Below, one piece after another: positions 6,231 to 28,600 of a stretch of DNA of 44,482 bases; positions within the stretch are counted from its first letter, which is position 1, and each line of letters opens with the position of its first letter. The stretch comes from an uncultured Bacteroidales bacterium. Its GTDB lineage: Bacteria; Bacteroidota; Bacteroidia; Bacteroidales; Bacteroidaceae. The notes beneath the pieces were generated by a model. It saw only the letters and a list, made by a program, of their open reading frames with translations. It was not told the DNA's origin and searched no databases. The DNA is taken from positions 1-44,482 of the forward strand of contig CADCIP010000026.1 in assembly GCA_902801485.1 (NCBI GenBank). Reading direction: 5' to 3'. Position numbers and translations under genes: made by a program.

Positions 6231-6860
6231 TTACTTGAGCATTTCAAGAGCTTTCTTAGCCTGGTCCAGATCAGCAATAACTAACTGTTGCACAAGATGT
6301 TGTGGTCCCTCGTCTTCTTTCCAGTTGAATTGTGCCTTTAATCCGAAGATCGAGCCGGCCGGGTTCCCCCTGTTTGTATAACAGTTTCTTTCTAACTGGT
6401 CCTGGATCATCAGATCGGCTTTTTTGCGCAGCCACGACCAAGGTAGAAGTAGCACCGGCCCATTTTCACCATCGCACCAAGGCAAACCGTCCTTATCGTA
6501 GGTTATATCATTCTCAGTAATATTATGATCGTGTATGTATTCCTCTAGTAGGTAGTCCAAGTCTCCGTCTTTAGCCCGGAGCCAGGCATCTTCTAATATA
6601 CCTATAGCCAGGCGTACCCCTGCAACTGTTATAGGTTGTTTTTTCCTGTAACACTCCTCAGTATATGCCAGTATGCTATTGTAGGCGGTCCCGGTCATTT
6701 CCTGGGTATACTTGCGGCGTCTCTTCTTGTCTTCTACATATTCTTTATACCCGGCGACCTCTTCCCGGTACATCTTAGCCAGTGCTATTATTTTCTCCGG
6801 GTCCCGTCGGTGATCGTCCAGGCCGCGCCGGTCCCCTGCTTTATTCAATTTCTCAGTCAT
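6231..6860 (-). CDS. Putative terminase small subunit
   Basis: 209 residues from ATG 6860 (AGGGGG about 10 bases upstream); a GTG at 6908 would add 16 residues but has no visible RBS. Small terminases recognise the packaging site and hand DNA to TerL. The N-terminal half is Lys/Arg-rich and helical (KMYREEVAGYKEYVEDKKRRR), the middle is acidic, and the C-terminal part has AGSIFGLKAQFNWKEDEGPQ, resembling the segment found after the helix-turn-helix core of many small terminases (GSIFxLKxxFxW). It is the first gene of the leftward late block and the next well-supported gene is terL. No textbook DNA-binding motif is obvious, so the call rests on that segment and on position. Confidence 0.65.
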   Translation of the reverse strand: MTEKLNKAGDRRGLDDHRRDPEKIIALAKMYREEVAGYKEYVEDKKRRRKYTQEMTGTAYNSILAYTEECYRKKQPITVAGVRLAIGILEDAWLRAKDGDLDYLLEEYIHDHNITENDITYDKDGLPWCDGENGPVLLLPWSWLRKKADLMIQDQLERNCYTNRGNPAGSIFGLKAQFNWKEDEGPQHLVQQLVIADLDQAKKALEMLK

Positions 6861-6949
6861 AAGATCGGTGCCCCCTGGTTTATAGTTTCCTCTTATAAGA
6901 TCGGCCACAGCTGACGCGCTGCCGCTTGTCTTCCTTGCGTCCGCCCCTT

Positions 6950-7034: not shown

Positions 7035-7072
7035 ACAGCATACACGCCGCCCTTGCCTATTTCTACAACTGA

Positions 7073-7081
7073 ATAATACCA
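7073..7081 (-). promoter_or_regulatory. Candidate late promoter (extended -10)
   Basis: On the - strand TGGTATTAT forms an extended -10 element, with no recognisable -35 hexamer 17 bases upstream. That is what an activator-dependent promoter looks like. It would start transcription near 7066, about 200 bases before the small terminase, and could be the target of the ArpU-like protein at 10570-10998. Confidence 0.35.
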
Positions 7082-7219
7082 CGCCAGGAGCCGCGAAAGT
7101 TTCGCAATATTGCCCCATGATCCAGGAATTCTAAAACTTTTTTAATCGCCAAACCCCAGTAATTGCAACGTCTCCGAGATCATGCAGAAAAAAAGTTAAA
7201 AAAATATTGAAAAAAGTGC

Positions 7220-7248
7220 TTGACACTCATGAGTGGCAGGTGTATTCT
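7220..7248 (+). promoter_or_regulatory. Strong sigma-A-type promoter of the ArdC operon
   Basis: TTGACA at 7220-7225, a 17-bp spacer and TATTCT at 7243-7248. Start of transcription is expected near 7255, giving a leader of about 75 bases before the first gene at 7332. Two types of palindrome overlap it (next entries), so it is probably repressed. Confidence 0.7.
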
Positions 7249-7313
7249 ATACTTGCCACAAGGCAAACAGCACCAGGGCCCACGCCCTGAACCAAATTGA
7301 TACACTCATGAGT
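7225..7313. promoter_or_regulatory. Twin palindromic operators ACTCATGAGT
   Basis: The perfect 10-bp palindrome ACTCATGAGT occurs at 7225-7234, inside the promoter spacer, and again at 7304-7313 in the leader, 79 bp apart; both share the longer word ACACTCATGAGT. Two identical copies around one promoter suggest a dimeric repressor, possibly with looping. The only small DNA-binding-like candidate in the operon is the ribbon-helix-helix-like protein at 10354. Confidence 0.6.
7234..7258. promoter_or_regulatory. Second operator-like inverted repeat over the -10 and start site
   Basis: TGGCAGGTGTA (7234-7244) and TATACTTGCCA (7248-7258) pair at 9 of 11 positions around a 3-bp centre. It covers the -10 hexamer and the predicted start, adjoining the ACTCATGAGT site, so a second regulator or a composite operator is likely. 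Confidence 0.45.
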
Positions 7314-7331
7314 ACACAAAGGAGGCAAACC

Positions 7332-7700
7332 ATGAAAAAGTTAATCATCGCACTACTGATCGCAACCCTGGCACTGGCAGCAACAACAGCACCGGCCAGC
7401 GCAGCAACAACAGACAAGGGACTTGTAAAGGCCTACTGCATGAAGACATACAAGAAAGCCCCTAAATATGTCAAGGAGGGCAGCGCCCAGGTAAAGCACC
7501 ACAAAGGCAAAATGATAGTTGAAGTCGTCAAGACTAAAAGCTGCGGCAAGTACGGGAAAACCAGAGACGGCTACAAGATCAAGTACAACAAGACGGTAAA
7601 AAAGGGCCAGACCGTAAACGTTTACCTGGTATATAACCCCAGGAACAACGCCCCGGACGACATAACCGCCGTAATTTGCAACAAGAAGATCAGAAAGTAA
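7332..7700 (+). CDS. Small secreted protein, first gene of the ArdC operon
   Basis: 122 residues from ATG 7332, with GGAGG seven bases upstream; the frame is open further left but only this start has an RBS and a proper signal. Residues 1-24 are a textbook signal peptide (MKKLIIALLIATLALAATTA, then PASA before a cleavage after Ala24). The mature part (~98 residues) is very basic (many Lys), rich in beta-prone Val/Thr/Tyr segments, and has three cysteines. I do not recognise a family. A secreted protein at the head of an antirestriction operon is unusual for a phage: it could alter the cell surface (exclusion of other phages) or bind wall polymers, but this is inference only. Confidence 0.8.
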   Translation: MKKLIIALLIATLALAATTAPASAATTDKGLVKAYCMKTYKKAPKYVKEGSAQVKHHKGKMIVEVVKTKSCGKYGKTRDGYKIKYNKTVKKGQTVNVYLVYNPRNNAPDDITAVICNKKIRK

Positions 7701-7782
7701 GCCGAAACCGCCGCGAGGCGGTCCAGCGGACCCGGCCCCCCGCTGCTGATGAGGCAGGCCAACACAAAAGGAGGAAAAGAAA

Positions 7783-8697
7783 ATGGCTAAGAAGAACACC
7801 AATAAAAAGACAGTTGCGGAGATCGTAACACAGAGATTTATTGACGCGCTGGAGAAGGATAGTATCCCCTGGATCAAGCCGTGGGACGACTGGAAGAGCT
7901 GGAGCCGCAACACCGGCGACTTCTACCAGGGAGCTAACCTACTCACCACAAGCGGCGGCGAATATATCACATTCAACCAGGCCAAAGCGGAGGGAATAAA
8001 GATCAACAAAGGCGCCAAATCGGAAATGATCGTCAAGTATACCGAGTATATGCGCAAGATCAGCAAGGAAGACTTCCAGGCGGCCGGCTACGTCGTAACG
8101 GATAGAGTAGAGGATCACGGGGACTTTTACAAGATCCCGGCAAGGTCCGTCAAATATTACAACGTTTTCAACGTTACGGAGTGCACCGACGCGGAGCAAA
8201 AGCACGACCACAAGCAGCCGCGCCACGAGTGGGACGCAATCGAAGAGGCGGAGAGAATCCAAAAGGCCTACATCGAGAAAAGCGGGCTTGACGTACAGAC
8301 CGCCGGGAATCAGCCGCTTTACTCGCCATCTGGGCACTACATCGTGACCGGACGCCCGGAGCAATTCAAAAGCGCAGCGGCCTACTATTCTACATCATTC
8401 CACGAGTTGATCCACTCAACACAGAAAGAGTTGAACCGGGAAACCGGCGCAGCTTTCAGAGGCAGCGACGGCAAAGCAAAGGCCCGAGAGGAACTAGTCG
8501 CGGAGATCGGCGCGGCCTATCTGATGTCATACCTGGGAATTGAGAACGGATACAGCATCAACAATTCTGAGGCATACGTCAAAAGTTGGATCAGCAACCT
8601 AAAGAACGACCCCAACGCGATTTTATGGGCAGCACCAAAGGCAATCGAGGCGGCCGAGCTCATTCTGGCCGCCGCCGGGGTAAAGGTAAACCAGTAA
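7783..8697 (+). CDS. ArdC-like antirestriction protein
   Basis: 304 residues; start ATG 7783 with AAAGGAGG. The N-terminal domain (~1-130) has the ArdC signature IPWIKPWDDW (28-37), NTGDFYQGANLL (43-54) and ITFNQAKAEG (62-71), a single-strand DNA-binding module. The C-terminal zincin-like metallopeptidase domain has HELIH at 207-211 with the downstream acidic EELVAEIGAAYL (237-248), giving a complete metal site. ArdC-family proteins are carried by plasmids, integrative elements and some phages and shield incoming DNA from restriction enzymes. Length is typical. It is the largest gene of the operon and presumably its core function. Confidence 0.92.
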   Translation: MAKKNTNKKTVAEIVTQRFIDALEKDSIPWIKPWDDWKSWSRNTGDFYQGANLLTTSGGEYITFNQAKAEGIKINKGAKSEMIVKYTEYMRKISKEDFQAAGYVVTDRVEDHGDFYKIPARSVKYYNVFNVTECTDAEQKHDHKQPRHEWDAIEEAERIQKAYIEKSGLDVQTAGNQPLYSPSGHYIVTGRPEQFKSAAAYYSTSFHELIHSTQKELNRETGAAFRGSDGKAKAREELVAEIGAAYLMSYLGIENGYSINNSEAYVKSWISNLKNDPNAILWAAPKAIEAAELILAAAGVKVNQ

Positions 8698-8711
8698 GGG
8701 AGGCGTGAACA

Positions 8712-9017
8712 ATGATAAGCAAGGCAAAGCAAAGGAAGATCGGAGCATATATGAACATGCTGGACAAGATGAAGAGAGAAGACGAAAACAGGGCAAAGAT
8801 CAATATATATATGGACCTGGTCCCGGTAATTGTAAAAGAGGAAGCCGGCGCCTGGACAATCGACAGCCCGGACAGCGGCCCGGACGGGTTCAACACCAAG
8901 GCGGAACTGATGGACTACATCAACGGGGAACTGGAAGAGATCCGGAAGGTATACGAGAGCAACGGAGAAATAGACGAGCTCCGGAGGGTATACGAAGAGA
9001 ACGGAATGGAATGGTAA
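8712..9017 (+). CDS. Hypothetical acidic protein in the ArdC operon
   Basis: 101 residues from ATG 8712, with GGGAGG upstream. N-terminal basic helix (SKAKQRKIGAYMNMLDKMKR), then a mixed region and an acidic C-terminal helix containing a doubled unit: EIRKVYESNGEIDEL followed by RRVYEENGMEW. No family recognised. It lies 14 bp after ardC. Confidence 0.7.
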   Translation: MISKAKQRKIGAYMNMLDKMKREDENRAKINIYMDLVPVIVKEEAGAWTIDSPDSGPDGFNTKAELMDYINGELEEIRKVYESNGEIDELRRVYEENGMEW

Positions 9018-9031
9018 AGGAGCGAAGAAAA

Positions 9032-9199
9032 ATGAAAGAGATAGCAAAGAAGATCAAGGAATCGAAGATATACGCCGCGGCGGAACTAATAACCATGCTG
9101 CCGCTACTGATTCCAACGGTGGTATTGGCATACGCAGCAATCCCGGTGGTACTGGCCGGGTGGAAGATAACGGAAACAATAGCAAAGATCAGAGGATAA
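9032..9199 (+). CDS. Small membrane protein in the ArdC operon
   Basis: 55 residues from ATG 9032, with AAAGGAG ten bases upstream. After a Lys-rich start (MKEIAKKIKESKIYAAAEL) comes a hydrophobic hairpin-like region (residues ~20-45, with MLPLLIPTVVLAYAA), then TETIAKIRG. Probably one or two membrane segments. Unknown role. Confidence 0.6.
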   Translation: MKEIAKKIKESKIYAAAELITMLPLLIPTVVLAYAAIPVVLAGWKITETIAKIRG

Positions 9200-9215
9200 G
9201 AAGGAGGACGAGAAG

Positions 9216-9455
9216 ATGAAAAAATACCGGGGTTATTACATCGACGGCGCAGTTTTCAGCAGCAAGGCAGAGATCGACGACTTTATAAAAGAGAACGCAA
9301 AACAGGCGTATATAAAAGCCCTGAGAGTGTTTAACAGACGGGGAACGATGGAGGCGTCCGCTTTTTGCAGCGAAAGAGCGCAACACATGAACCGCCAAGG
9401 GTACACCTGGGAGGAGATCGAAGCAATCGAAACAGCAGTATTAAAGGAGGTGTAA
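9216..9455 (+). CDS. Hypothetical protein in the ArdC operon
   Basis: 79 residues, ATG 9216 after AAGGAGG. It begins KKYRGYYIDGAVFSSKAEIDDFI, a small beta-hairpin followed by helix resembling short host-interaction proteins of mobile elements, and ends with WEEIEAIETAVLKEV. The start SKAEIDDFIK is similar to NTKAELMDYIN of the protein at 8712, so the two may share a small module. Function unknown. Confidence 0.65.
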   Translation: MKKYRGYYIDGAVFSSKAEIDDFIKENAKQAYIKALRVFNRRGTMEASAFCSERAQHMNRQGYTWEEIEAIETAVLKEV

Positions 9456-9457
9456 CA

Positions 9458-9640
9458 ATGAAAACTTACGGCATATATTACAGCCTCGCCGAGTACAAAA
9501 TCGAACCGCATTATACCGAGTCCGTAACATTTTACGGGGAGTTTCAGGGGACAACAATGCGGGAGGCGATGAAGCGACTAGTTGACCTAGAAAAACGACA
9601 GGCTAGAGTTATCAAAATCAAACGAGTAAAGGAGGTATAA
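9458..9640 (+). CDS. Hypothetical small protein in the ArdC operon
   Basis: 60 residues from ATG 9458, with AAAGGAGGTG overlapping the end of the previous gene. Sequence MKTYGIYYSLAEYKIEPHY followed by REAMKRLVDLEKRQARVIKI suggests two beta strands and one helix. The layout (strand-hairpin, then helix) resembles a small conjugative-element accessory protein, but no family is recognised. Confidence 0.6.
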   Translation: MKTYGIYYSLAEYKIEPHYTESVTFYGEFQGTTMREAMKRLVDLEKRQARVIKIKRVKEV

Positions 9641-9642
9641 CC

Positions 9643-9936
9643 ATGTGCACAGATAGAACAATGAACAAGCATATCAGCGAGGCCATGAGGATAAAGGCCG
9701 AAATCCAGATATTAAAGGCCGAACTGGAAGCACACCAGGACTTTATAAAGGGAGAACTGGAAGCGCGGGACAAAACGGCATACACCTACGGGAAGGACCT
9801 GGACAGTATCACCGTAACGTGGAAAGAGTACAGCAAGAAGAGACTGGACCAGAAGAAACTTAAAGAGGAGCGCCCGGAGATCGTCGCGGAGTACATGATC
9901 GAGGCGAAGGAAAAGCGCTTTACCATGAGGCACTAA
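9643..9936 (+). CDS. Hypothetical protein with YqaJ-tail-like segment
   Basis: 97 residues, ATG 9643 after AAAGGAGG. An N-terminal coiled coil (AMRIKAEIQILKAELEAHQ) is followed by DSITVTWKEYSKKRLDQKKL and ERPEIVAEYMIEAKEKRFTM. The second half resembles the short module found at the end of, or next to, phage YqaJ-type nucleases (TVTWK...RxDxKxLKEExPExxxKY). The role is unproven; a DNA-end-processing accessory is one possibility. The phage YqaJ-like exonuclease itself is far away at 17913-18506 on the other strand. Confidence 0.65.
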   Translation: MCTDRTMNKHISEAMRIKAEIQILKAELEAHQDFIKGELEARDKTAYTYGKDLDSITVTWKEYSKKRLDQKKLKEERPEIVAEYMIEAKEKRFTMRH

Positions 9937-9949
9937 GGGAGGCGAGGAC

Positions 9950-10069
9950 ATGAACGAGCTATTCACAACGGACGCGTGGATCGCGTTGCTGGAATTCATA
10001 AGCATAAGCGGGATAATTACAGCCGGCGGGTGCTATATCGAGAGGAAGACAGAAAGGCGGAGAAAATGA
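9950..10069 (+). CDS. Tiny membrane protein
   Basis: 39 residues from ATG 9950, with GGGAGGCGAGG upstream. A hydrophobic helix (ALLEFISISGIITAGGCYI) is followed by a basic tail ERKTERRRK. It overlaps the next gene through ATGA, indicating translational coupling. Function unknown. Confidence 0.5.
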   Translation: MNELFTTDAWIALLEFISISGIITAGGCYIERKTERRRK

Positions 10070-10314
10070 GTATAATTTGTGATAGAGGCGGAACAAGGAT
10101 AAAGGGGACAACCATAGAGACGATCCAGGACTTCGTAAATATAATAAACGCGGTCCGGGTATCACTTGAAGACGAAATGGACCCGGAAGATGCAGCGGGG
10201 ATCATGGAACAGTGCGGCCGCCTGGCATACGCCACAGGGGACAAGAACACCGAAGCGGAGGCGGCAGCTTTCAGGGAGATAACGGACCTGCTGCTGAAAA
10301 ATGGGAAAATGTAA
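10066..10314 (+). CDS. Hypothetical protein, translationally coupled
   Basis: 82 residues from ATG 10066, overlapping the previous stop, with GGCGGAG upstream. Starts MSIICDRGGTRIKGTTIETI, continues as helices with an acidic centre (EDEMDPEDAAGIME). Earlier in-frame starts exist but lie inside the previous gene. No family recognised. Confidence 0.6.
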   Translation: MSIICDRGGTRIKGTTIETIQDFVNIINAVRVSLEDEMDPEDAAGIMEQCGRLAYATGDKNTEAEAAAFREITDLLLKNGKM

Positions 10315-10320
10315 AAAGTA

Positions 10321-10329
10321 TGGTATAAT
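10321..10329 (+). promoter_or_regulatory. Extended -10 promoter before the ribbon-helix-helix-like gene
   Basis: TGGTATAAT gives a perfect -10 with the TG extension; the -35 region is poor. It lies 25 bases before the start at 10354, so the last gene of the operon may also be made separately, as expected for an autoregulated repressor. Confidence 0.5.
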
Positions 10330-10353
10330 AACCGGACATAGGAGGACGAACAG

Positions 10354-10542
10354 ATGGGAAAGAGGCCATATAACGAGGCGAGGGCCGAGGCCAACGCCAG
10401 GTACGACGAGAAGACGTACAAGAAAATAAGTATAGCTTTTAGAAAAGACGACGACGCCGATATAATACGCTCCATTGAAGAGGCAAAAGCAAAAGGGATC
10501 AGCCTCCGGGAGTGGGTAAGGGAACTATACGACAAGAAATAA
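10354..10542 (+). CDS. Small DNA-binding-like protein (ribbon-helix-helix type)
   Basis: 62 residues, ATG 10354 after AGGAGG. A basic N-terminus, then YKKISIAFRKDDDADIIRSI and an Ala/Lys helix ending ISLREWVRELYDKK. The strand-helix-helix pattern (short beta strand KKISIAF followed by two helices) is that of Arc/MetJ-type proteins common on plasmids and integrative elements. It has its own promoter and is the last gene before the terminator; I infer it could repress the ArdC operon through the ACTCATGAGT sites. Confidence 0.65.
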   Translation: MGKRPYNEARAEANARYDEKTYKKISIAFRKDDDADIIRSIEEAKAKGISLREWVRELYDKK

Positions 10543-10569
10543 GAAAGCCCCGCAGCAGCGGGGTTTTTG
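10543..10569 (+). terminator. Terminator closing the ArdC operon
   Basis: CCCCGC (10548-10553), loop AGCA, GCGGGG (10558-10563) and TTTTT. On the opposite strand it is followed by CTTTCTT, so it may also help to stop the early operon arriving from the right at 10570. Confidence 0.85.
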
Positions 10570-10998
10570 TTATGAATAATACTTTGATTCGATGAAACGG
10601 GCCATATAGTTTTCTATGCGAGCTTTCTCCTGGTATACTTTTGTCTGCCCCATGCCGTGGGTTCTTCCGTAGTCCTGGACAAAGAACGATATGCTTTTGG
10701 TGGGATAATAGAACCCCCGTATAAGCTCTCTATCTTCGTCTGTAAGCATATTAAAGGCCAATTCAAGGATTTCCTTGTAAAGCAATATTTCTTCGATCTG
10801 TGCGTCGATTTCTAGCCTACGCAGCGCTGCCTTAGCGGTAATATCCGAAACGGTCCCGGACTTTGCGGCGGGAACATCGTTAGACGACGGGAGCACAGAC
10901 AGATTATCATGTTCTGCCCTGAGCTTTTGTATATCATCGTCCCAGTGCCGGGAGGCTTTTAAAAACGATTTGATGTCAAAGGGTCTCCATTGGTTCAT
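10570..10998 (-). CDS. ArpU/RinA-like late transcription regulator
   Basis: 142 residues, last gene of the leftward early operon. The C-terminal half has LTDEDRELIRGFYYPTKSIS and a helix-turn-helix-like GQTKVYQEKARIENYMARFI, the pattern of sigma-70 region 4-like phage regulators (ArpU/RinA-type). The N-terminal half is a coiled-coil-like region containing IDAQIEEILLYKEILELAFN. Such proteins switch on late genes in phages of Bacillota. Its gene ends at the convergent terminator, and the late operon promoter should lie just beyond the inserted ArdC operon. The start ATG 10998 overlaps the stop of a tiny upstream ORF. Confidence 0.7.
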   Translation of the reverse strand: MNQWRPFDIKSFLKASRHWDDDIQKLRAEHDNLSVLPSSNDVPAAKSGTVSDITAKAALRRLEIDAQIEEILLYKEILELAFNMLTDEDRELIRGFYYPTKSISFFVQDYGRTHGMGQTKVYQEKARIENYMARFIESKYYS

Positions 10999-17617: not shown

Positions 17618-17916
17618 TCTTCCTCCCAGTCAAGGTATGACCGCCCATAGCGAGCCATCCATTCTTCACGGGTATGTGTCTCCTCGTACTTTCGCTGTGC
17701 CATCCGCTTATAGAACAGATCCGTTTCTCTGTTGTTATGCGGTGTATCATGTGGACTATCGGCTATGTGATAATCCCACCGAAGATAGATGTATAATCCA
17801 TCCTCCTCCGCATGTTGACGATCAGGGCCATTCATGCAGTGATGCTTATGTAGCCCAGGGCCGTAGTAGCCTGTCAAGAAACACTCGTGGTTATCCTGCA
17901 ATATTGACTTACTCAT
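17614..17916 (-). CDS. Ref-like HNH nuclease
   Basis: 100 residues. Starts with SILQDNHECFLTGYYGPGLH followed by KHHCMNGPDRQHAEEDGLYI, and contains WDYHIADSPHDTPH. The Cys-(x)-HH-(x)-H spacing and LHKHHCMNG/DGLYI core match the small HNH-type nucleases near phage recombination genes (Ref-like/DUF968-like). Probably a DNA nicking enzyme used in recombination. Overlaps both neighbours by 4 bp. Confidence 0.65.
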   Translation of the reverse strand: MSKSILQDNHECFLTGYYGPGLHKHHCMNGPDRQHAEEDGLYIYLRWDYHIADSPHDTPHNNRETDLFYKRMAQRKYEETHTREEWMARYGRSYLDWEEE

Positions 17917-18506
17917 AACGGCCTCTTATTCTTCTTCAGCGCCCTTGCAAGTTCTTTGACCTTCGGTAAATACTCGGCCTTGATCCAGCCTTTGTCGTAC
18001 TCTATTTCCTGCATCTGAATACGTTTCTCGTAGACTTCCACCTGGCCCTCTAGTACTTCGTACTCGTTATCATGCAACGGATAATTTACAAGTATCAGCT
18101 TTTGAAAGCCCGGCAAAAACCACTCGGAGCAAAGTTCCTGATACACGAACATTTCCACTTGGCACTGCATCCAATAATCTTTGGTAACTGTAAACTCGTT
18201 TTTCGCCCTATGGGTCTTGCACTCATATATGACACCATCCTTGTAGCCGTCATAATTTACGCGGATCTTGTATTTCTCATATATGATCTGACCGTCAAGG
18301 ATCATGTCCTCGTCTATGGTCTTTAATATCGGATGCTCGTACATGGTCCCGGCTCTGGTGTATACGTTGCCGATCATGTCTGCTTGTCTCTCGCCGGTCT
18401 TCACCTTCCACCAGTCGTCCCAGGTCGCCGTGTTCCGATTCTTGGCCATGACTTTTTTAGTATCGGATGCTCCGAAATATCCCGATCTATCTAAGTTCTG
18501 AATCAT
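17913..18506 (-). CDS. YqaJ-like exonuclease (PD-(D/E)XK recombinase nuclease)
   Basis: 197 residues from ATG 18506, overlapping the upstream stop (ATGA). N-terminal GYFGASDTKKVMAKNRNTAT with TWDDWWKVKTG, then TRAGTMYEHPILKTI (conserved E of helix 1). The catalytic core RVNYDGYKDGVIYECKTHRA supplies D-(X)n-ExK, and YWMQCQVEMFVY gives the Q motif helix. This is the lambda Exo/YqaJ fold that chews one strand of double-stranded ends. Next to the Rad52-like annealing gene it forms a two-component single-strand annealing recombination system. Confidence 0.85.
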   Translation of the reverse strand: MIQNLDRSGYFGASDTKKVMAKNRNTATWDDWWKVKTGERQADMIGNVYTRAGTMYEHPILKTIDEDMILDGQIIYEKYKIRVNYDGYKDGVIYECKTHRAKNEFTVTKDYWMQCQVEMFVYQELCSEWFLPGFQKLILVNYPLHDNEYEVLEGQVEVYEKRIQMQEIEYDKGWIKAEYLPKVKELARALKKNKRPL

Positions 18507-19207
18507 TTGCCAGCCAACCATTCAATAACGTTCACAAGCCTTTGCGTTTCCATGTCGTCCAGGGTAGCAACATTCCCCTTCTTACAGATAGCATCTATGG
18601 TTATGCTCTTCAGGTCGCTCAGTTCATGGATGCGCATTATGAGTTCTTCCCTCTCGTCTTTCTCGCTCTTCTGGTTACTGGGAGGAACAGCATCACCGTA
18701 TGTTGAGAACAAGTCTTCGCCGTTCTTGTTGCATATAACCAACGTAGCGATGTTTCTGCTCTCGTCGTAGCCGATCTCCTTTACGTAGCTCCCTGCAAAA
18801 AGGCTTTTATTCACGAGCTCATGCCCGTAGCCTTTGTCCTTCGGTTTTGTCGGGCAAGCAACCGGGATAAACGGCGATGAATAAAGCTCCCTGCCTATCC
18901 CCCAGTTGAAACACGCCCTCTTAAAGGAATCTGAGGCAAGGCCTTTCTCCGCTTCAGTGAATGACTGAGTACCGGTGTCTTCCTTGCTTACCCACTCGCC
19001 CTTATCAGGATCGTAGATCGACACAGTACAGTTGGCATTGTCCCGTGAGTGCTCACGTTTCCAGTTGAAAGGTCCCACTACTTCGTCCAGGAGTTTCATG
19101 TCAACACGTGCGTCCTTATACAGAAGTAACGAACATCCGCCGGCCCATACCGATCCGACTCTGACTTCTATCTCGTCTGCCATTAGGGGCCTGAAATTGA
19201 GATCCAT
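18503..19207 (-). CDS. Rad52/Sak-family single-strand annealing protein
   Basis: 234 residues, ATG 19207 with AGGAGG seven bases upstream. The family core is clear: VGSVWAGGCSLLLYKDARVD, then KREHSRDNANCTVSIYDPDK, KEDTGTQSFTEAEKGLASDS and FKRACFNWGIGRELYSSPFI. These residues form the DNA-binding groove of Rad52/22-type annealers. The C-terminus is a separate helical domain. It anneals complementary strands produced by the neighbouring exonuclease, possibly to circularise or recombine phage DNA. Confidence 0.88.
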   Translation of the reverse strand: MDLNFRPLMADEIEVRVGSVWAGGCSLLLYKDARVDMKLLDEVVGPFNWKREHSRDNANCTVSIYDPDKGEWVSKEDTGTQSFTEAEKGLASDSFKRACFNWGIGRELYSSPFIPVACPTKPKDKGYGHELVNKSLFAGSYVKEIGYDESRNIATLVICNKNGEDLFSTYGDAVPPSNQKSEKDEREELIMRIHELSDLKSITIDAICKKGNVATLDDMETQRLVNVIEWLAGK

Positions 19208-20425: not shown

Positions 20426-20529
20426 GTACTTTACAGATAAGTTTTACTAAAGTTTGGTATTTCCCAATGTCACCATCATTGTAAATGGTGAATCCTAATT
20501 TGTCAATACCTTTATTTGGGTTTTACCAA
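20406..20529. promoter_or_regulatory. Repressor operators in the switch region
   Basis: Two palindromic sites TTGGTATTTCCCAA (20454-20467) and TTGGGTTTTACCAA (20516-20529) share TTGG-N6-CCAA, and a half-site TTTGGGAAAT lies at 20406-20415 within the rightward promoter. The middle site covers the first transcribed bases of the leftward promoter. The set fits a CI/Cro type switch. The remaining spacer is AT-rich and contains no gene. Confidence 0.6.
20478..20506 (-). promoter_or_regulatory. Leftward early promoter
   Basis: On the - strand TTGACA (20506-20501), exactly 17 bp, TACAAT (20483-20478): a near-consensus promoter. Start expected near 20471, with about 110 bases of leader before the Cro-like gene. 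It faces the rightward promoter at 20397-20425, so their leaders overlap by ~40 bases. Confidence 0.7.
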
Positions 20530-20553
20530 AAATATTTTCAAGGAGTTATTGGA

Positions 20554-21045
20554 ATGTATGAAAGATTCAAGCATTTGCTGGAATTGAAAGGGGTTTCAGC
20601 TTATCGAGTCGCAAAGGAAACAAAAATCAACCCTACAACTTTTACCGAATGGAAGCGAGGCGACTACACGCCCAAAAGAGACAAGCTGCAAAAGATCGCA
20701 GAATATTTTAATGTGCCTGTTACTTATTTTTATGAAGGCACAGACGACAGCGTAGACAATTATTTGTTGGACGTTGCTGTTACGCATCTTTCAAGCAAGC
20801 TTCGGGAAGACCAAAGAAATATCATAAAGGCCGCCGCATCATTAACAGAGGAGGAGGTCGTTATTGTAGACACTTTAATTAGAGCACTCAAAGAAATGAA
20901 GCCAGAAGAAGTTACCGTGGCGAAAATGATGATTAAATCGCTCGCCGATTTGCACAACGAAAAAGAAGTGGAAAGAGTTGCTAAAATTAGTCACATGCAC
21001 AATGAGGGGTATACGGAGATCCACCCATGGGGAGGAGACGAATAA
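20554..21045 (+). CDS. CI-like lysogeny repressor
   Basis: 163 residues from ATG 20554 (AAGGAG upstream); earlier in-frame codons lack an RBS and overlap an operator. HTH_3 domain at ~5-65: KHLLELKGVSAYRVAKETKI, NPTTFTEWKRGDYTPKRDKL and AEYFNVPVTYFYEG. The C-terminal part (70-163) is helical (EEEVVIVDTLIRALKEMKPE) with no S24 peptidase residues, so induction does not use LexA-like self-cleavage. First gene of the rightward lysogeny unit. Confidence 0.85.
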   Translation: MYERFKHLLELKGVSAYRVAKETKINPTTFTEWKRGDYTPKRDKLQKIAEYFNVPVTYFYEGTDDSVDNYLLDVAVTHLSSKLREDQRNIIKAAASLTEEEVVIVDTLIRALKEMKPEEVTVAKMMIKSLADLHNEKEVERVAKISHMHNEGYTEIHPWGGDE

Positions 21046-22648: not shown

Positions 22649-25600
22649 TCAATGCTTTCTACTCTTCTCGCGAAGTTTTTTAAGTCTTTTTCTGTAAGCA
22701 TTGTCCAGATTTGACTTTACGGTTACATCGGATATTTGACCAAACGGATCAGTTATCTTACCAAGCCTAGAGGCCTTAGGCCCAGCGGTCTTAGTTGCCT
22801 TAGCTTTGATAGCGCCGGTTGCGGTTGCCGGTACTTCACCGCCACCGCCGGAGCCTCCGCCACCGCCTCCGCGTCTACCACGTCTGCGGCCTCTGCGACC
22901 ACGGCCCCTGCCCTTGTTCTCGAGTTCATCGAGTTTGGTAATTCCGGTATCATTCTTCTGTGTCATATCCGGAATGTCGCCAAAGGGCTTATTGTAAGTG
23001 TCGTCGGTTATGACATGATACACGGCTGCTTTTACGGCATCAGTAGCATCTTTGTACTCCTTGTTTACGGCGGCCTCTACCTTTTTGTTAAAAGCTCTCC
23101 AGCCTTCGCCGCGTTCCTTTGCCGTAGTATTCTCGTAGTCAAACTTAGGAAGTTCAAGATTGTACTTGTCGGCAAAATCGTAAATTTCCTTTGTCGTATG
23201 ATCCGTTTTATTGAGATAACGGGCGTAGTTCATCCTGCGGCTTACTTTACCATCAGTATCGGCGGAGTAATAAGCGCCATCGGCATAGTTCTTCTTGGCC
23301 GTAGAGAGTGCCATAGCCTTATCCCAGGGGTTCATTTTGTTGGTGTACTCATATTCAAGCGCTCTACCTGCCTTGAACAATGTACGTTGCGACTTCCTAT
23401 AATAGCCCTGAGTAAAGCCATAATCTCGGTAATTCTTTCCGCGCTGGATGATTTTCTTGGTGTACTCTCCGTCCTCGTCGAAGTCTGGCCTGATATACGC
23501 CTTTGCAAGGTCGTCATTCTTGCCTTTCTCCGTTGCGGCCAGTACACTCGCAGTCATCCACGACGGGTAAGATTTATTCTCTCCTATCAGCCCATTAGTC
23601 CAGCGCATCTTTGAATAGAAGTCAATAAACTTTCCATCAGCCGTTTTAGGATTGTTCTTATACTCGTCGGACTTTTTATAAGCTCTCCAGGCGTCAAGGT
23701 GCTGGTTCTTCTTTTCGCCGGTCTCAGGATCAACATAAGTATAGGTAAGTTTCTCCATCGCATAATCGACGCCGACCATACCAGCAAGTTTCCTTATCGG
23801 GTCCATCTTCGGAGTTACGATCCCGTCTCCGTAAGCCAGGTCATGCCTAAAAGTGTTCTGAGCAATCTTGGCATTACGAATCAGGTCTTCCTTCTTTTTA
23901 CCCTTAAAGTCCTTACTCGTCTGGAAGTGCAGAACAGCACTGGAATAGGTCATGTCGTCATAACCCTTCTGGTTCAACCAGTCTTGCGCTTCAATAGTTT
24001 TATCGGTGATATTGTATTTGTTGTTCCCTAATACAGCATCCTTTCCGGCTTGCAGGATCTTTCCGCCAGTTGTTTTCGGGGCATTGAGTTTTGCGAACTC
24101 TTCCCATAATTCAGTGCCGGTCTTGTTTGAGAACACTGAATCCTTGACGAACTGGTTGACAAATGGATTGCCTGATCCAACTTCGGGTTTGGTCTTATCG
24201 AGCGACAATACCCCAAGATCGTATATCATGCCGAGGTACGAATCCATCAGGTCGTCTATCTTCTTAGGAGACAATTTGAACCTGTCGGATATTGTCTTTC
24301 CACCGAATTTCTTGTTACCAATCTCAATAGCAAGGGCAGATGTCTTCTCGTCGAATACTTCGCTGTGCTTTGTCTCACCGTCGCGAAGCGCGATAGTATC
24401 CGATATGGAATCAATACTCCCGCCGTACCATGTCTTGTTCTGCCAGAGCCTTACGAGCGGTGAAATGATATTATCGGTCAACGGGTTTACTGGTCCAATG
24501 TTGTCCCATGCAGAATCCCACATCTGGAACATCTTTTCACCGGAGTACTCGCCTTTATCGATAACGCCAACTTGCGCCTTATCAAAGAAGTACCTAAGCC
24601 CATACTCTACCGGCTCTGCCAATACGGCGTTTTCTCTAGGTTTCGGAACCTTGATAAACTTTCCGTCGCCTATCGAGATAAAGAAGTTACTGTCTTTCTC
24701 TCTCGTGTTAAGGTTCTGGTAGTCCCTATTGTCCTTCATCAATACTTCATTTAGTACGGCAGGTGCAATAGTGAATGTCCCAAGTTTCATTCCAAGATTC
24801 AGCAACGCCTTGTCAGCGCGGCCTTCCGTAAATAACCTTATTGTTTTTGAAAGGCCTTGCAACGACGGATTCAAGTACGGGACAAGTCCAGAGTTAAGAG
24901 TCTTGCCCATCACGCCGGTACGTGAGAAGTTCAGAGTAATATCCGCCGAATTTCTCATAGCCTCGTCAACAGCATCTTTGCCACAAAGGTCAACGATCCT
25001 GTTCGCTACCTTTTCTTCAAACTCGTCGATCTCGTCGGCAGTAAGCTGTTTTGCAGTTTTGCCGGGGTACATATCCTCCATCATTTCTTTACGCAGTTGC
25101 TTGACAGAAGAGCCGTCTTTTTTGAGGATGTCGTTGGCGTGTTTGTTAAGAGTACCGATAAACTCGCACATTCTCGGTCCCATTTCAATAGCACTGTTCG
25201 CAGCCTCCAGTGCTCGTATTGGTGCCTTCAAGCCTTTAGGAATCTTCTCCATGCCCGGCTCGACGAATTTCTTGTCCTGCCTTACAAGCGCAGAGTACCT
25301 ACCGCCATTGGCCTGATACAGTTTCATGTAGGCGCTTTCCTGCCCCGTAATGGATCTGGCTATACTTGCGTATGCCTGTGGGATACTCTTGCAGTACGCC
25401 CGCGTGTTCTTGCTGTTCACAAGGGCCTGCTGGAAGTCTCTCGCACCGTTACGGATACCGAACATTATATTCCAGTCGGTTATCAGATGTTTGAAGTTGG
25501 TGCCAATGGTGTTAGTAACCTTGTTACTCGACATCTTCGTAAAGGCGTTCATCATGGTAGAAAAGTCTGTACCATTGAACTCCTTTAAGCCCTGAGCAAC

Positions 25601-28600
25601 TATCTTGTCACACGCCATCGTTACGGGCTCGCCATCTTGGAAAAACGTTACTCTCCATCCTCCATCGTGGCCCTTATGGACAGAGATCGCAGCCTCGGAT
25701 ACTTCCTCTAATGTTGCCCCCCTAGGAATTGCACCGGGGCCAAGCCCCTTTGCCTTAGCAAACATGTTCATCATGACGTTCTCTTCTGCGTTTTTGAGTA
25801 CGTCTTCTGTCCGTTTGACAGTCTGTGAGTACAAGTCCTCTATGGGTTCACGTCCGCCGGTAGCGACTCCAACAGTCTGCCCTATGTTGGCCTGGTAACT
25901 TTCGCCATTTGATATGACTCCTTCCATCCAGTCGTCGCCTTCACGATACGTAGGCACGTAGTTGGGATACTTTTCTTTAAGTGCGTCAGCGAAATCCTTT
26001 GTAACAAGCCCGGCATCAACACGGTACTGCATGAGATTGTCATAGTATCCTCTCATGCCTTTTTCAAACTGTTCCAGTTGGCCAAGTTCGCCTCGCTCTT
26101 TATACTTACCTGCAATATCGTCAATGAGTTCTTGATACTGCTCTTTTGTATAAAGGCTGGCCCCATCCTCGCCCATGTGAACGGGCTTACCTGCATCAAG
26201 TCGATCTATGGCGTGTTTATACAGAAGATAATTTGTAAAGTCGGCTTTCTTTTCTTTGTTCTTCTTCCCGAACAGCCCGGCCTTTTCGTAAATAGCATCA
26301 AGGCCATCGCCAGTGATCTTCCCGTCAAGGTTGGTGCGTTTCTGTTGGATAAAGGCGCTAAGTTTATTCCTGGTCAGATATACTTTAGTTGTCTGATTGA
26401 GCAGTTGCTTGTCGCCAGCCTTCATGGCCTCTTTCTCTATGCCATAAAGTGACGATACCCATTGACGTACAACAGAGTCCTTAGCATCAGCCAGTTTCTG
26501 TATACCGGTAGGCAGTTGTCTTTTTGGTTTTGCGTCAATGCCGTTAGGCCTTTGAGCCTCATACCTGGCCTTTGCAGCTTCGACTTCTGCGTCGGGCAGA
26601 ATCCCTACATCTCTTGTGTCCTCATCAAAGCCAATGGGTTTATCCTTAATGGATTCAGTCTTCGACTCGGCGGTCTTCTCCGGCTTTGGTTTTACCGGCT
26701 CCGACTCGGTCAGTTTGCTGCCCTGCATTTCAGCAAGTTTTTCCTCGCCCTTTGCGATGTAGTCTTTGATCTCCTTGACGCGCGGAGAGTCCTCGCCGTG
26801 CTTCTCAATAGCCCTTTTAAGATGGAAGTTCTTTTCACTGTCAAGATGCTTTTCAAGCTGTGCAGGAGACATATCGTCTATAGGCTTTAACGGTGTAGGA
26901 TCATCAATGCCCTTATAAGTTCCAGCGTTCTCCCTCGCAAGATCAAGAATCTCGTCAACAGTAAACCCCTTGTATTCGGCTATATCAGCATCGCTAAGAG
27001 TCCTAACGATCCTTTCCTCCGGGAAGATGTCGTCTGCGTTCATCATCACCGCATCGACCATTTTAGTGAAGCGATCCTCGACTCCCGATGTCTCAGGTGG
27101 GAAGTATTCAGGCCATTCCTTGCTAAGGGTAGACCACTGATCGTCTATCTGGGCCCTGGGTGTCTTTCCGCCTTTGTCAATTACGGCTCTGTGCGCGCCT
27201 TTCTTGCCTAATGTGCTAGCTTTCTTGTTCCATCTGCGAATCGGCAGAAGGTGGGTCATGTTTTTAGGCAGCCCGATGTACTCTAAAAACTCATCCAGTG
27301 TCCTAGCAGAACCGGGGGGCATTTCCCACGCATGGCTCTTCAGATACCTTTGAATGTCTTTTAGCTCTTCGCGCTTCTTCTTGTAGTCAGGATCAATCTC
27401 TCGTTCTTCTGCATCATAACGGAAGTGCTTTTCTACAAGTTCCTCAGCATCGGCCTTTGCGCCAGCATCGTCACCATTGGCGATCCTGTTGCTGATGGTC
27501 TCAAAGGATTTGTCAATATCCTTTTGTTCGGCCTTAGTAAACTCCTTCTTGTCGTGCTTCTGTGAGTTAAGTGTCTCCTGCACTCTATCCTTTATGGGCC
27601 TTGAGGCTTTTCTGTTGGCCTTGAGTCCTTTAGGCATTTCGCCAGAATCGGGAGCAGGCCTTTCAATACCGGCAAGTTCATCGTCGCTGTTCTTGATAAC
27701 GTCCTCGTTGTTTCTGACAACGGTTTCGTCGCTTGCCCTCTGCGCCTCGATTGCTTTTAATGCCTCGTCTGCGTTTTCTTTTGTTACACGGCCTCCGCCT
27801 AGTTCTTCGCTTATCTCGTTAATACGTGAAATGATCTCGTCAGAACGTTTCTCGGCTTCTGGTGTAAAGTCTTTCTTGTTCAGGTCCTTTAACTCAGCGT
27901 CAAGGTCTTTCCACTCTTTGAATAGCGGGTTTTCGGGGATGTCTGTGTATTTGCCTATACCCTTGCTTTGGTCTTCTAACAACGATTCAAGGTCTTTGCC
28001 ATATAACTCCTTGTTGTTAGAAATAATGCGTTCAAGCCTATCCAATTTGCTTTTTATGCTTAAAGCATCTTTGCTATTAGGATCAAGCCGCTTCAGATCG
28101 GCACGATAGTCACGAACCATCGAAACAGTTTTGCTCCGCATTTCGGCCAATTTGTTCTGTTCTCGCTCTATACCAATTCGCTTGCCTTCAAGTTGCTCTT
28201 TTGTTAGCAGCTCGTCAGGCAAATATTTTAAGAAGTCAGAATCGGAGGGATTGACTTTTTTTATTAAGTCTGCTACATTGTACGTGGATGACATAGTAGC
28301 GCGACCCCTACCATTGTGAGTAGGCAAGTCCGCTGCATTGACTGTCATCTTTTTTATTTTCTCCATTACGACAGTTACGTATAACTTATTCTTTCGTTTG
28401 TCTGCCCTTCTTATAACAATCATCTCGACAGGAGAAACAGATCCATTGTCCTCTATCGCACCAAGCAAAACGTAAGTTCCTTCGTGATCGTCGCCCTCCT
28501 TAAATGTACCCTTGTAAAGATCAGAGTATTCTTTAATAGGTACAGCATTTTTTACGGTTTCATCAAGGGAAGTTAGCGTCTTCCCAAGCTGTTCGTATTC

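What the first reader, a model, noticed from the sequence alone, without database searches (positions are those of the whole stretch)
7220..10569. Self-contained ArdC antirestriction operon inserted between late activator and late genes
A ten-gene unit with its own promoter, operators, internal promoter and terminator runs against both neighbouring operons. It contains ArdC, a secreted protein, two small membrane proteins, a coiled-coil protein and a ribbon-helix-helix-like protein. All genes have excellent RBSs and short spacing, suggesting that it moves and works as a whole. ArdC is usually a plasmid/ICE gene; the associated small genes may be a new anti-defence or superinfection package.
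Basis: partly seen in the sequence, partly recalled or inferred. Interest (0 to 1): 0.7.

Follow-up and report, generated by a model that had tools for sequence, protein, structure and literature searches.

The report
Phage antirestriction cassette with private switch
A temperate phage carries a self-contained block of small genes, led by a protein that protects DNA from restriction, and the last gene of the block appears to be an off-switch whose presumed DNA-reading residues and target sites have changed together across related phages.

Summary
The ten-gene unit is real, with its own promoter, two exact operators (0.06 expected in the window by chance) and terminator, between a putative late regulator and the terminase genes. 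Gene 2 is ArdC. It does not travel as a whole: among 11 phages with a complete slot (window included), cargo is ArdC in 5, ArdA in 2, neither in 4. Gene 10, a small ribbon-helix-helix-like protein, is in 9 of 11 (6 of the 8 relatives found without using gene 10). All nine gene-10 loci have a repeated operator at a promoter. Operator differences track three alternating residues (24, 26, 28; 32 of 362,880 permutations), not the rest of the protein (133,908). A first, cruder metric gave only p=0.029. Best reading: a fast, self-limiting antirestriction cassette with gene 10 as autorepressor, working like the plasmid p576 ardC/Reg regulon and acr-aca operons. Against: no profile or model confirms the fold; one relative kept the operators but lost this gene 10. 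Bolder and unproven: diverging repressors form counter-defence immunity groups.

The parts
7188..7217 (+). A-tract-rich upstream (UP-like) element
   Evidence: three A-runs of 5 or more in the 45 bp upstream; also 3 in L002, L030, L016, L021, L031, L027, 2 in L178 and L179, 0 in L039
7220..7248 (+). cassette promoter TTGACA-17-TATTCT
7223..7236 (.). operator 1, core ACTCATGAGT 7225-7234, overlapping the -35 and the spacer
7302..7315 (.). operator 2, same core at 7304-7313, in the 5' leader just before the g1 Shine-Dalgarno
7332..7700 (+). g1, 122 aa, signal-peptide-like N-terminus; relatives in the slot of L039 (61%) and L025 (47%)
7783..8697 (+). g2, ArdC (ArdcN + zincin domain, HELIH at residues 207-211)
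   Evidence: PF08401 5e-12 and PF18818 3e-26; solved ArdC 6i89/6sna E 3e-31 with the 4-sequence profile
8712..9017 (+). g3, 101 aa; relative in L179 (41%), N-terminal 22-residue match in L002
9032..9199 (+). g4, 55 aa, one hydrophobic segment
9216..9455 (+). g5, 79 aa, no relative seen in the slots compared
9458..9640 (+). g6, 60 aa; 78% identical in L002
9643..9936 (+). g7, 97 aa, stand-alone version of the C-terminal part of RecE/YqaJ-like exonucleases
   Evidence: phrog_1956 4e-9, phrog_434 positions 277-361 of 372; Listeria phage A118 RecE-like, E 7e-4
9950..10069 (+). g8, 39 aa, one borderline hydrophobic segment
10066..10314 (+). g9, 82 aa; relative directly before gene 10 in L270 (39%), another in L025 (32%)
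10321..10329 (+). internal extended -10-like element TGGTATAAT before g10
   Evidence: sequence; not tested for significance
10354..10542 (+). g10, 62 aa, ribbon-helix-helix-like putative autorepressor; proposed specificity residues 24, 26, 28 = K, S, A
10548..10568 (+). intrinsic terminator
   Evidence: one search lists the hairpin on the - strand
6231..6908 (-). flank: terminase small subunit-like
   Evidence: position next to TerL; sub-threshold PF16677 0.007; matched in relatives
10570..10998 (-). flank: ArpU-like putative late regulator
   Evidence: phrog_36 2e-5; no Pfam match

Best explanation
The unit is a counter-restriction cassette of a temperate phage, kept in a variable-cargo slot between the late regulator and the terminase genes. 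On entry, a strong promoter free of repressor should give a burst of ArdC (or ArdA in relatives), which shields phage DNA from restriction, together with small membrane and accessory proteins. Gene 10, made from the same transcript and probably also from its own internal promoter, is a ribbon-helix-helix-type dimer that binds the operator at the promoter and a second one in the leader, and shuts the cassette off. Residues 24, 26 and 28 of its ribbon read the operator. Shown by computation: the anatomy, the ArdC/ArdA families, cargo exchange, repeated operators, and covariation of residues 24/26/28 with the operator. Inferred: the fold of gene 10, repression, burst kinetics, antirestriction activity, and the role of the other genes.
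For: ArdC: PF08401/PF18818, solved ArdC E 3e-31. ArdA in the same slot: PF07275 7e-33 in L016, 57% identical relative in L178. All 9 gene-10 loci have an operator at a TTGAC promoter plus at least one further copy. In all 9, residues 24/26/28 alternate with hydrophobic 25/27/29. The three positions were named from two loci (note) before the other loci were read. Covariation: (8 loci) 8/40,320, partial about 1e-4, rest of protein p=0.49; (9 loci) 32/362,880, rest 133,908/362,880, columns 28, 24, 26 rank first to third, 4 of 19,600 column triplets do as well; without the two loci that suggested it, 8/5,040. Matched contrast: L016 and L021 differ at 34% of the other columns yet share residues Q-N-R and the exact operator; window and L030 differ at 31% of the other columns, at all three residues and in the operator. 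No exact operator copy elsewhere in the window, so the phage's CI-like regulator (20485-21045) is an unlikely binder. The host bin carries two type I HsdR genes. Precedent: RHH Reg of plasmid p576 represses ardC from operators beside the promoter and, at some promoters, downstream of the start site (PMC8708921, section 16 and passages).
Against: The first operator metric gave only p=0.029 (partial 0.045), and 1,614 of 18,424 triplets did as well; the better metrics were designed afterwards. The loci share ancestry, and three of the nine (L016, L178, L179) first came from gene-10 searches. No Pfam RHH model matches gene 10 (best RHH-type hit NikA-like 0.016 in 1 of 8). AlphaFold (monomer, 8 sequences, pLDDT 70) models residues 8-33 as helix, not strand, and Foldseek has no match below E 0.001. 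L019/L189 keeps the L016 cassette (98% DNA identity) and both operators but carries a different gene in place of gene 10. L270 has 5 rather than 4 nt between half-sites. Before gene 10 itself an operator-like site better than chance is seen only in L016 (2% of random stretches), not in window, L002, L030, L021 or L179. L031 and L098 lack gene 10. Function was not measured.
Confidence: 0.7

Rival explanations
1. Lysogenic-conversion (moron) cassette: expressed from the prophage to exclude other phages through the secreted and membrane proteins, with ArdC incidental.
For: Own promoter and terminator, opposite to the late genes; g1 secreted-like, g4/g8 hydrophobic; g1 relatives in the same slot of L025 and L039.
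Against: g1 was found in only 2 relatives, while operators and gene 10 persist; two operators on the promoter argue for silence in a lysogen; two antirestriction families alternate as cargo.
Confidence: 0.15
2. Gene 10 is not the repressor: the palindromes are bound by another phage or host factor and gene 10 is an unrelated small protein or antitoxin.
For: RHH fold not confirmed by profile or structure prediction; L019/L189 keeps the operators with a different last gene.
Against: Operator differences follow three alternating residues of gene 10 (weaker); no operator copies near the CI-like gene; no constant partner gene seen beside gene 10 (g9 precedes it only in the window and L270).
Confidence: 0.17
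3. A complete anti-defence package that is transferred as one mobile unit.
For: Compact, self-contained transcription unit.
Against: None of the ten other complete slots holds the window's gene set; ArdA replaces ArdC in two; no g10 match in 50,697 phage or 72,556 plasmid records at E 0.1.
Confidence: 0.03

Closest known systems
Establishment regulon of plasmid p576 / clade II pLS20-family plasmids (ardC + RHH repressor Reg)
   Same: ardC behind a strong promoter; small RHH repressor encoded on the same element; operators at the promoter and, at two of four promoters, just downstream of the start; some cargo genes replaced between relatives (PMC8708921: section 16 and passages seen)
   Different: There the operators are direct TTATCCCnnTTATCCC repeats upstream of -35, on conjugative plasmids. 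Here they are inverted repeats at the spacer, in a phage, and no plasmid match to gene 10 was found at E 0.1. That paper's discussion contrasts plasmid RHH with phage HTH repressors (passage).
acr-aca operons and anti-defence gene clusters
   Same: Small-gene operon with its own repressor gene; cargo exchange; early burst then shut-off expected
   Different: HTH was called a hallmark of earlier Aca proteins (PMC7648647, passage); gene 10 shows no HTH match; no anti-CRISPR is identified here
ArdC of R388
   Same: Same two domains and HExxH
   Different: Phage-borne and distantly related in sequence; [quoted passage not shown]
ArdA antirestriction proteins
   Same: First gene of the cassette in L016, second in L178
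   Different: Not in this window

Membership tests
ArdC family | ArdcN ssDNA-binding domain plus zincin (MPTase-PolyVal) domain | tested here: met
   both above Pfam cut-offs; one search solved ArdC E 3e-31
ArdC family | HExxH metal site | tested here: met
   HELIH at residues 207-211
ArdC family | antirestriction activity | not testable with these tools
   needs a restriction assay
Ribbon-helix-helix repressors | match to a known RHH profile or fold | tested here: inconclusive
   no Pfam RHH match, one NikA-like 0.016 in 1 of 8; low-confidence monomer model lacks the strand, keeps two helices; no Foldseek match below E 0.001
Ribbon-helix-helix repressors | alternating ribbon residues that set operator choice (defining role of these residues recalled, not from a call) | tested here: met
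   only p=0.029 with the first metric
p576-type establishment regulon | ardC promoter flanked by operators of a co-encoded RHH repressor | tested here: inconclusive
   operators and promoter layout present; repressor identity inferred
p576-type establishment regulon | carried by a conjugative plasmid | tested here: not met
   window has terminase, portal and integrase
acr-aca operon | HTH-type Aca repressor | tested here: not met
   no HTH match for gene 10
acr-aca operon | anti-CRISPR gene | not tested
   no dedicated anti-CRISPR library at hand

The most novel reading that the evidence does not exclude
Gene 10 and its operators form counter-defence immunity groups. A resident prophage's gene 10 would silence the antirestriction cassette of any superinfecting relative with the same operators, leaving it exposed to restriction. 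This would drive diversification of repressor residues 24/26/28 together with the operators, as with CI immunity groups but acting on anti-defence genes.
Probability: 0.25. Interest if true: 0.8.

Novelty: new variant of a known kind. Interest (0 to 1): 0.6.

Why it matters
It suggests a phage version of the RHH-controlled ardC switch known from Bacillus conjugative plasmids, gives a marker (gene 10 and its operators) for finding new anti-defence genes by guilt by association in these phages, and supplies nine natural repressor/operator sets that make a small protein-DNA specificity code directly testable. If specificity groups limit superinfection, it would link prophage immunity with counter-defence.

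Tried and rejected
Gene-10 search of genome contigs with the two-sequence alignment found no relative by tblastn. The genome search found gene 10 only in the window's own genome: 1 of 399 (family) and 1 of 393 (order). phrog_13890 gave 0 of 149 at E 1e-6, so no deeper alignment of gene 10 could be made. PDB profile search for gene 10: best CasPi 0.008 over 23 residues, taken as chance. Foldseek with the gene-10 model and with the g1 model (both pLDDT about 70) gave nothing at E 0.001 or below. PADLOC gave only weak matches (DrmMII 0.011 for g2, CorA-like 0.003 for g7), not taken up. A motif count for KTY-type small proteins in 79 ArdA loci (3 of 79, controls 0 of 78) is not used as evidence: the motif was too narrow and missed known gene-10 loci.

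The first operator metric was weak. I replaced it by a dyad-centred one and then by half-sites so that L270 could be included; all three are reported. The L270 row was placed by hand after the HMM alignment, with four N-terminal residues left out and the last residues trimmed. L019/L189 was left out of the tests because its last gene matches the gene-10 model only over its first part (19 bits). Weaker hits (L213, L273, L190, L276, L228, L003) were also left out and their operators not sought.

Considered and rejected: a toxin-antitoxin pair g9-g10 (g9 precedes gene 10 only in the window and L270); control of the operators by the CI-like regulator (no copies elsewhere).
Full report
WHAT IS THERE. 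The window is one whole contig (G000:C26) of a 3.6-Mb genome bin. It holds a temperate-phage gene set: portal, large terminase, DnaD-like loader, RecE-like exonuclease, integrase and CI-like regulator. Between a TerS-like gene (6231-6908, -) and an ArpU-like gene (10570-10998, -) lie ten + strand genes. They have a TTGACA-17-TATTCT promoter, two exact ACTCATGAGT palindromes (0.06 expected, 0 of 100 shuffles with two), an internal extended -10-like element before gene 10 and a strong terminator (z -5.3). With one mismatch allowed the palindrome count is not above chance (2 against 1.5), but no third site appears.

GENES. Gene 2 is ArdC by Pfam and by match to solved ArdC, with HELIH at residues 207-211. 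Gene 1 has a signal-like N-terminus. Genes 4 and 8 have one hydrophobic segment each, that of gene 8 borderline. Gene 7 resembles the C-terminal part of RecE/YqaJ-like exonucleases (phrog_434 positions 277-361 of 372; Listeria phage A118 RecE-like, E 7e-4). Gene 10 has no Pfam match and a weak match to phrog_13890 (1e-5).

RELATIVES. I fetched relatives through ArdC, gene 10, g6, TerL (79 loci; best 80 of 156; best 80 of 596) and ArdA (79 loci), and ran a gene-10 HMM on the 347 loci held plus the window (several loci are the same contig). I mapped 17 TerL relatives by tblastn, listed ORFs in the slot of 7 of these, and did the same by various means for L002, L016, L178, L179 and L270. The other TerL loci were not read. 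The slot was complete from TerS to the ArpU-like gene in 11 records, the window included: window, L002, L016, L021, L030, L031, L039, L098, L178, L179, L270. All 11 have + strand small genes there, L098 with additional - strand ones. ArdC: window, L002, L031, L039, L179 (5 of 11). ArdA: L016 and L178 (2 of 11; PF07275 7e-33 for L016). Neither at E 1e-3: L021, L030, L098, L270 (4 of 11). Incomplete slots: L019 has ArdA, L027 the start of an ArdC, L025 a g1 relative but neither. Gene 10 is in 9 of 11; L178 and L179 were found by gene 10 itself, so the less biased figure is 6 of the 8 relatives that TerL or ArdC searches brought in. L031 carries an HTH_3 protein (9e-9) and L098 another small protein near RHH_1 (0.011, below cut-off) instead. 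The cassette is therefore a slot with exchangeable cargo, not a fixed package.

REPRESSOR AND OPERATORS. In all nine gene-10 loci a palindrome lies in or overlaps the 16-18-bp spacer of a TTGAC promoter, with at least one further copy. In window, L002, L016, L021, L030 and L179 the second copy is in the leader, 36-79 bp away. In L178 it lies after gene 10, which comes first there. In L039 and L270 several promoters carry it. Cores: window ACTCATGAGT; L178 ACTCAATAGT; L179 ACTCTTTAGT and ACTCAAGAGT; L002 and L030 ACGTTAACGT with an imperfect second copy each; L016 and L021 ACGCTACAGT; L039 ACGATAT(C/A)GT; L270 ACTACTATAGT types with one base more between half-sites. Gene 10 residues 24/26/28 are: window KSA; L178 KNA; L179 KNA; L002 LGK; L030 LGK; L016 QNR; L021 QNR; L039 KLS; L270 KMY. 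I named these positions after seeing only the window and L002 (note).

TESTS. Metric 1 (14-mer of the promoter copy, shifts allowed; 8 loci): Mantel p 0.029, partial 0.045, and 1,614 of 18,424 column triplets do as well. Metric 2 (dyad-centred 10-mer core, all copies; 8 loci): r 0.72, 8 of 40,320 permutations, partial about 1e-4, rest of protein p 0.49; columns 28, 26, 24 rank first to third; 24 of 18,424 triplets do as well. Metric 3 (half-site 5-mers; 9 loci): r 0.69, 32 of 362,880; rest r 0.04, 133,908 of 362,880; columns 28, 24, 26 rank first to third; 4 of 19,600 triplets. Without window and L002: 8 of 5,040. With one member of each same-operator pair removed: 12 of 5,040 in both versions. 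Six loci: 8 of 720. Metrics 2 and 3 were designed after metric 1, and the loci are not independent by descent.

COUNTER-EVIDENCE. L019/L189 is 98% identical to L016 over 2,272 aligned bases including ArdA and both operators, but carries a different small protein in place of gene 10: a recent swap or an assembly chimera. AlphaFold on the gene-10 monomer gives two C-terminal helices but no strand, at pLDDT 70; the ribbon of RHH proteins forms only in the dimer (recalled), so this is inconclusive. Operator-like sites before gene 10's own promoter are no better than chance in 5 of 6 loci tested, the exception being L016.

MECHANISM AND COMPARISON. The design matches two known schemes. In plasmid p576, the RHH protein Reg represses a strong ardC promoter and more weakly its own, giving a short burst of establishment genes after entry (PMC8708921; passages and section 16). 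In phage acr-aca operons Aca proteins repress the acr locus (PMC7648647; passages), and archaeal viruses use a predicted wHTH Aca8 (PMC11065993; passages). PMC8708921 contrasts plasmid RHH repressors with phage HTH ones. I saw no paper describing a phage RHH-controlled antirestriction cassette in the listings (20 of 27 shown; 1 of 1; 15 of 87; 3 of 3; 10 of 12), judged by title and start of abstract; only open-licence papers are held. The host bin has two type I HsdR genes, so the presumed target class exists there; whether this phage meets it is not shown.

VERDICT. Real and coherent; a new variant of a known kind. The strongest new point is the repressor-operator covariation across nine loci; the weakest are the unconfirmed fold and the absence of any functional test.

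Noticed in passing
L189:8439-8630 (same contig as L019): Cassette 98% identical to L016, but gene 10 replaced by a different small KTY-motif protein, while both old operators are kept.
   Followed up: partly
window 9643-9936 and 17913-18521: The phage's RecE-like exonuclease (201 aa) matches only profile positions 63-224 of phrog_434; g7 in the cassette matches a C-terminal part it lacks (277-361), as a stand-alone domain.
   Followed up: no
L039 and L270, slot: The operator recurs at several promoters, so gene 10 may run a small multi-promoter regulon there.
   Followed up: partly
L002:9089-9833 (-): A DNA methylase (PF01555 2e-33 for the ORF 9089-9679), apparently split over two ORFs, sits between the cassette and the ArpU-like gene; a second possible anti-restriction device.
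   Followed up: no
L027 slot (reverse complement 7047-7560): A different RHH-like small protein (by eye; no Pfam match) precedes ArdC, flanked by CATACGTTTACCGTATG and CATACGTTAACCGTATG, as if the switch had been replaced.
   Followed up: no
G000:C8:78809-80836 and C36:23098-25158: Two type I HsdR genes in the host bin, both over the family cut-off.
   Followed up: no
window 22649-31510 (-): A 2953-aa open reading frame, very long for this phage; not examined.
   Followed up: no
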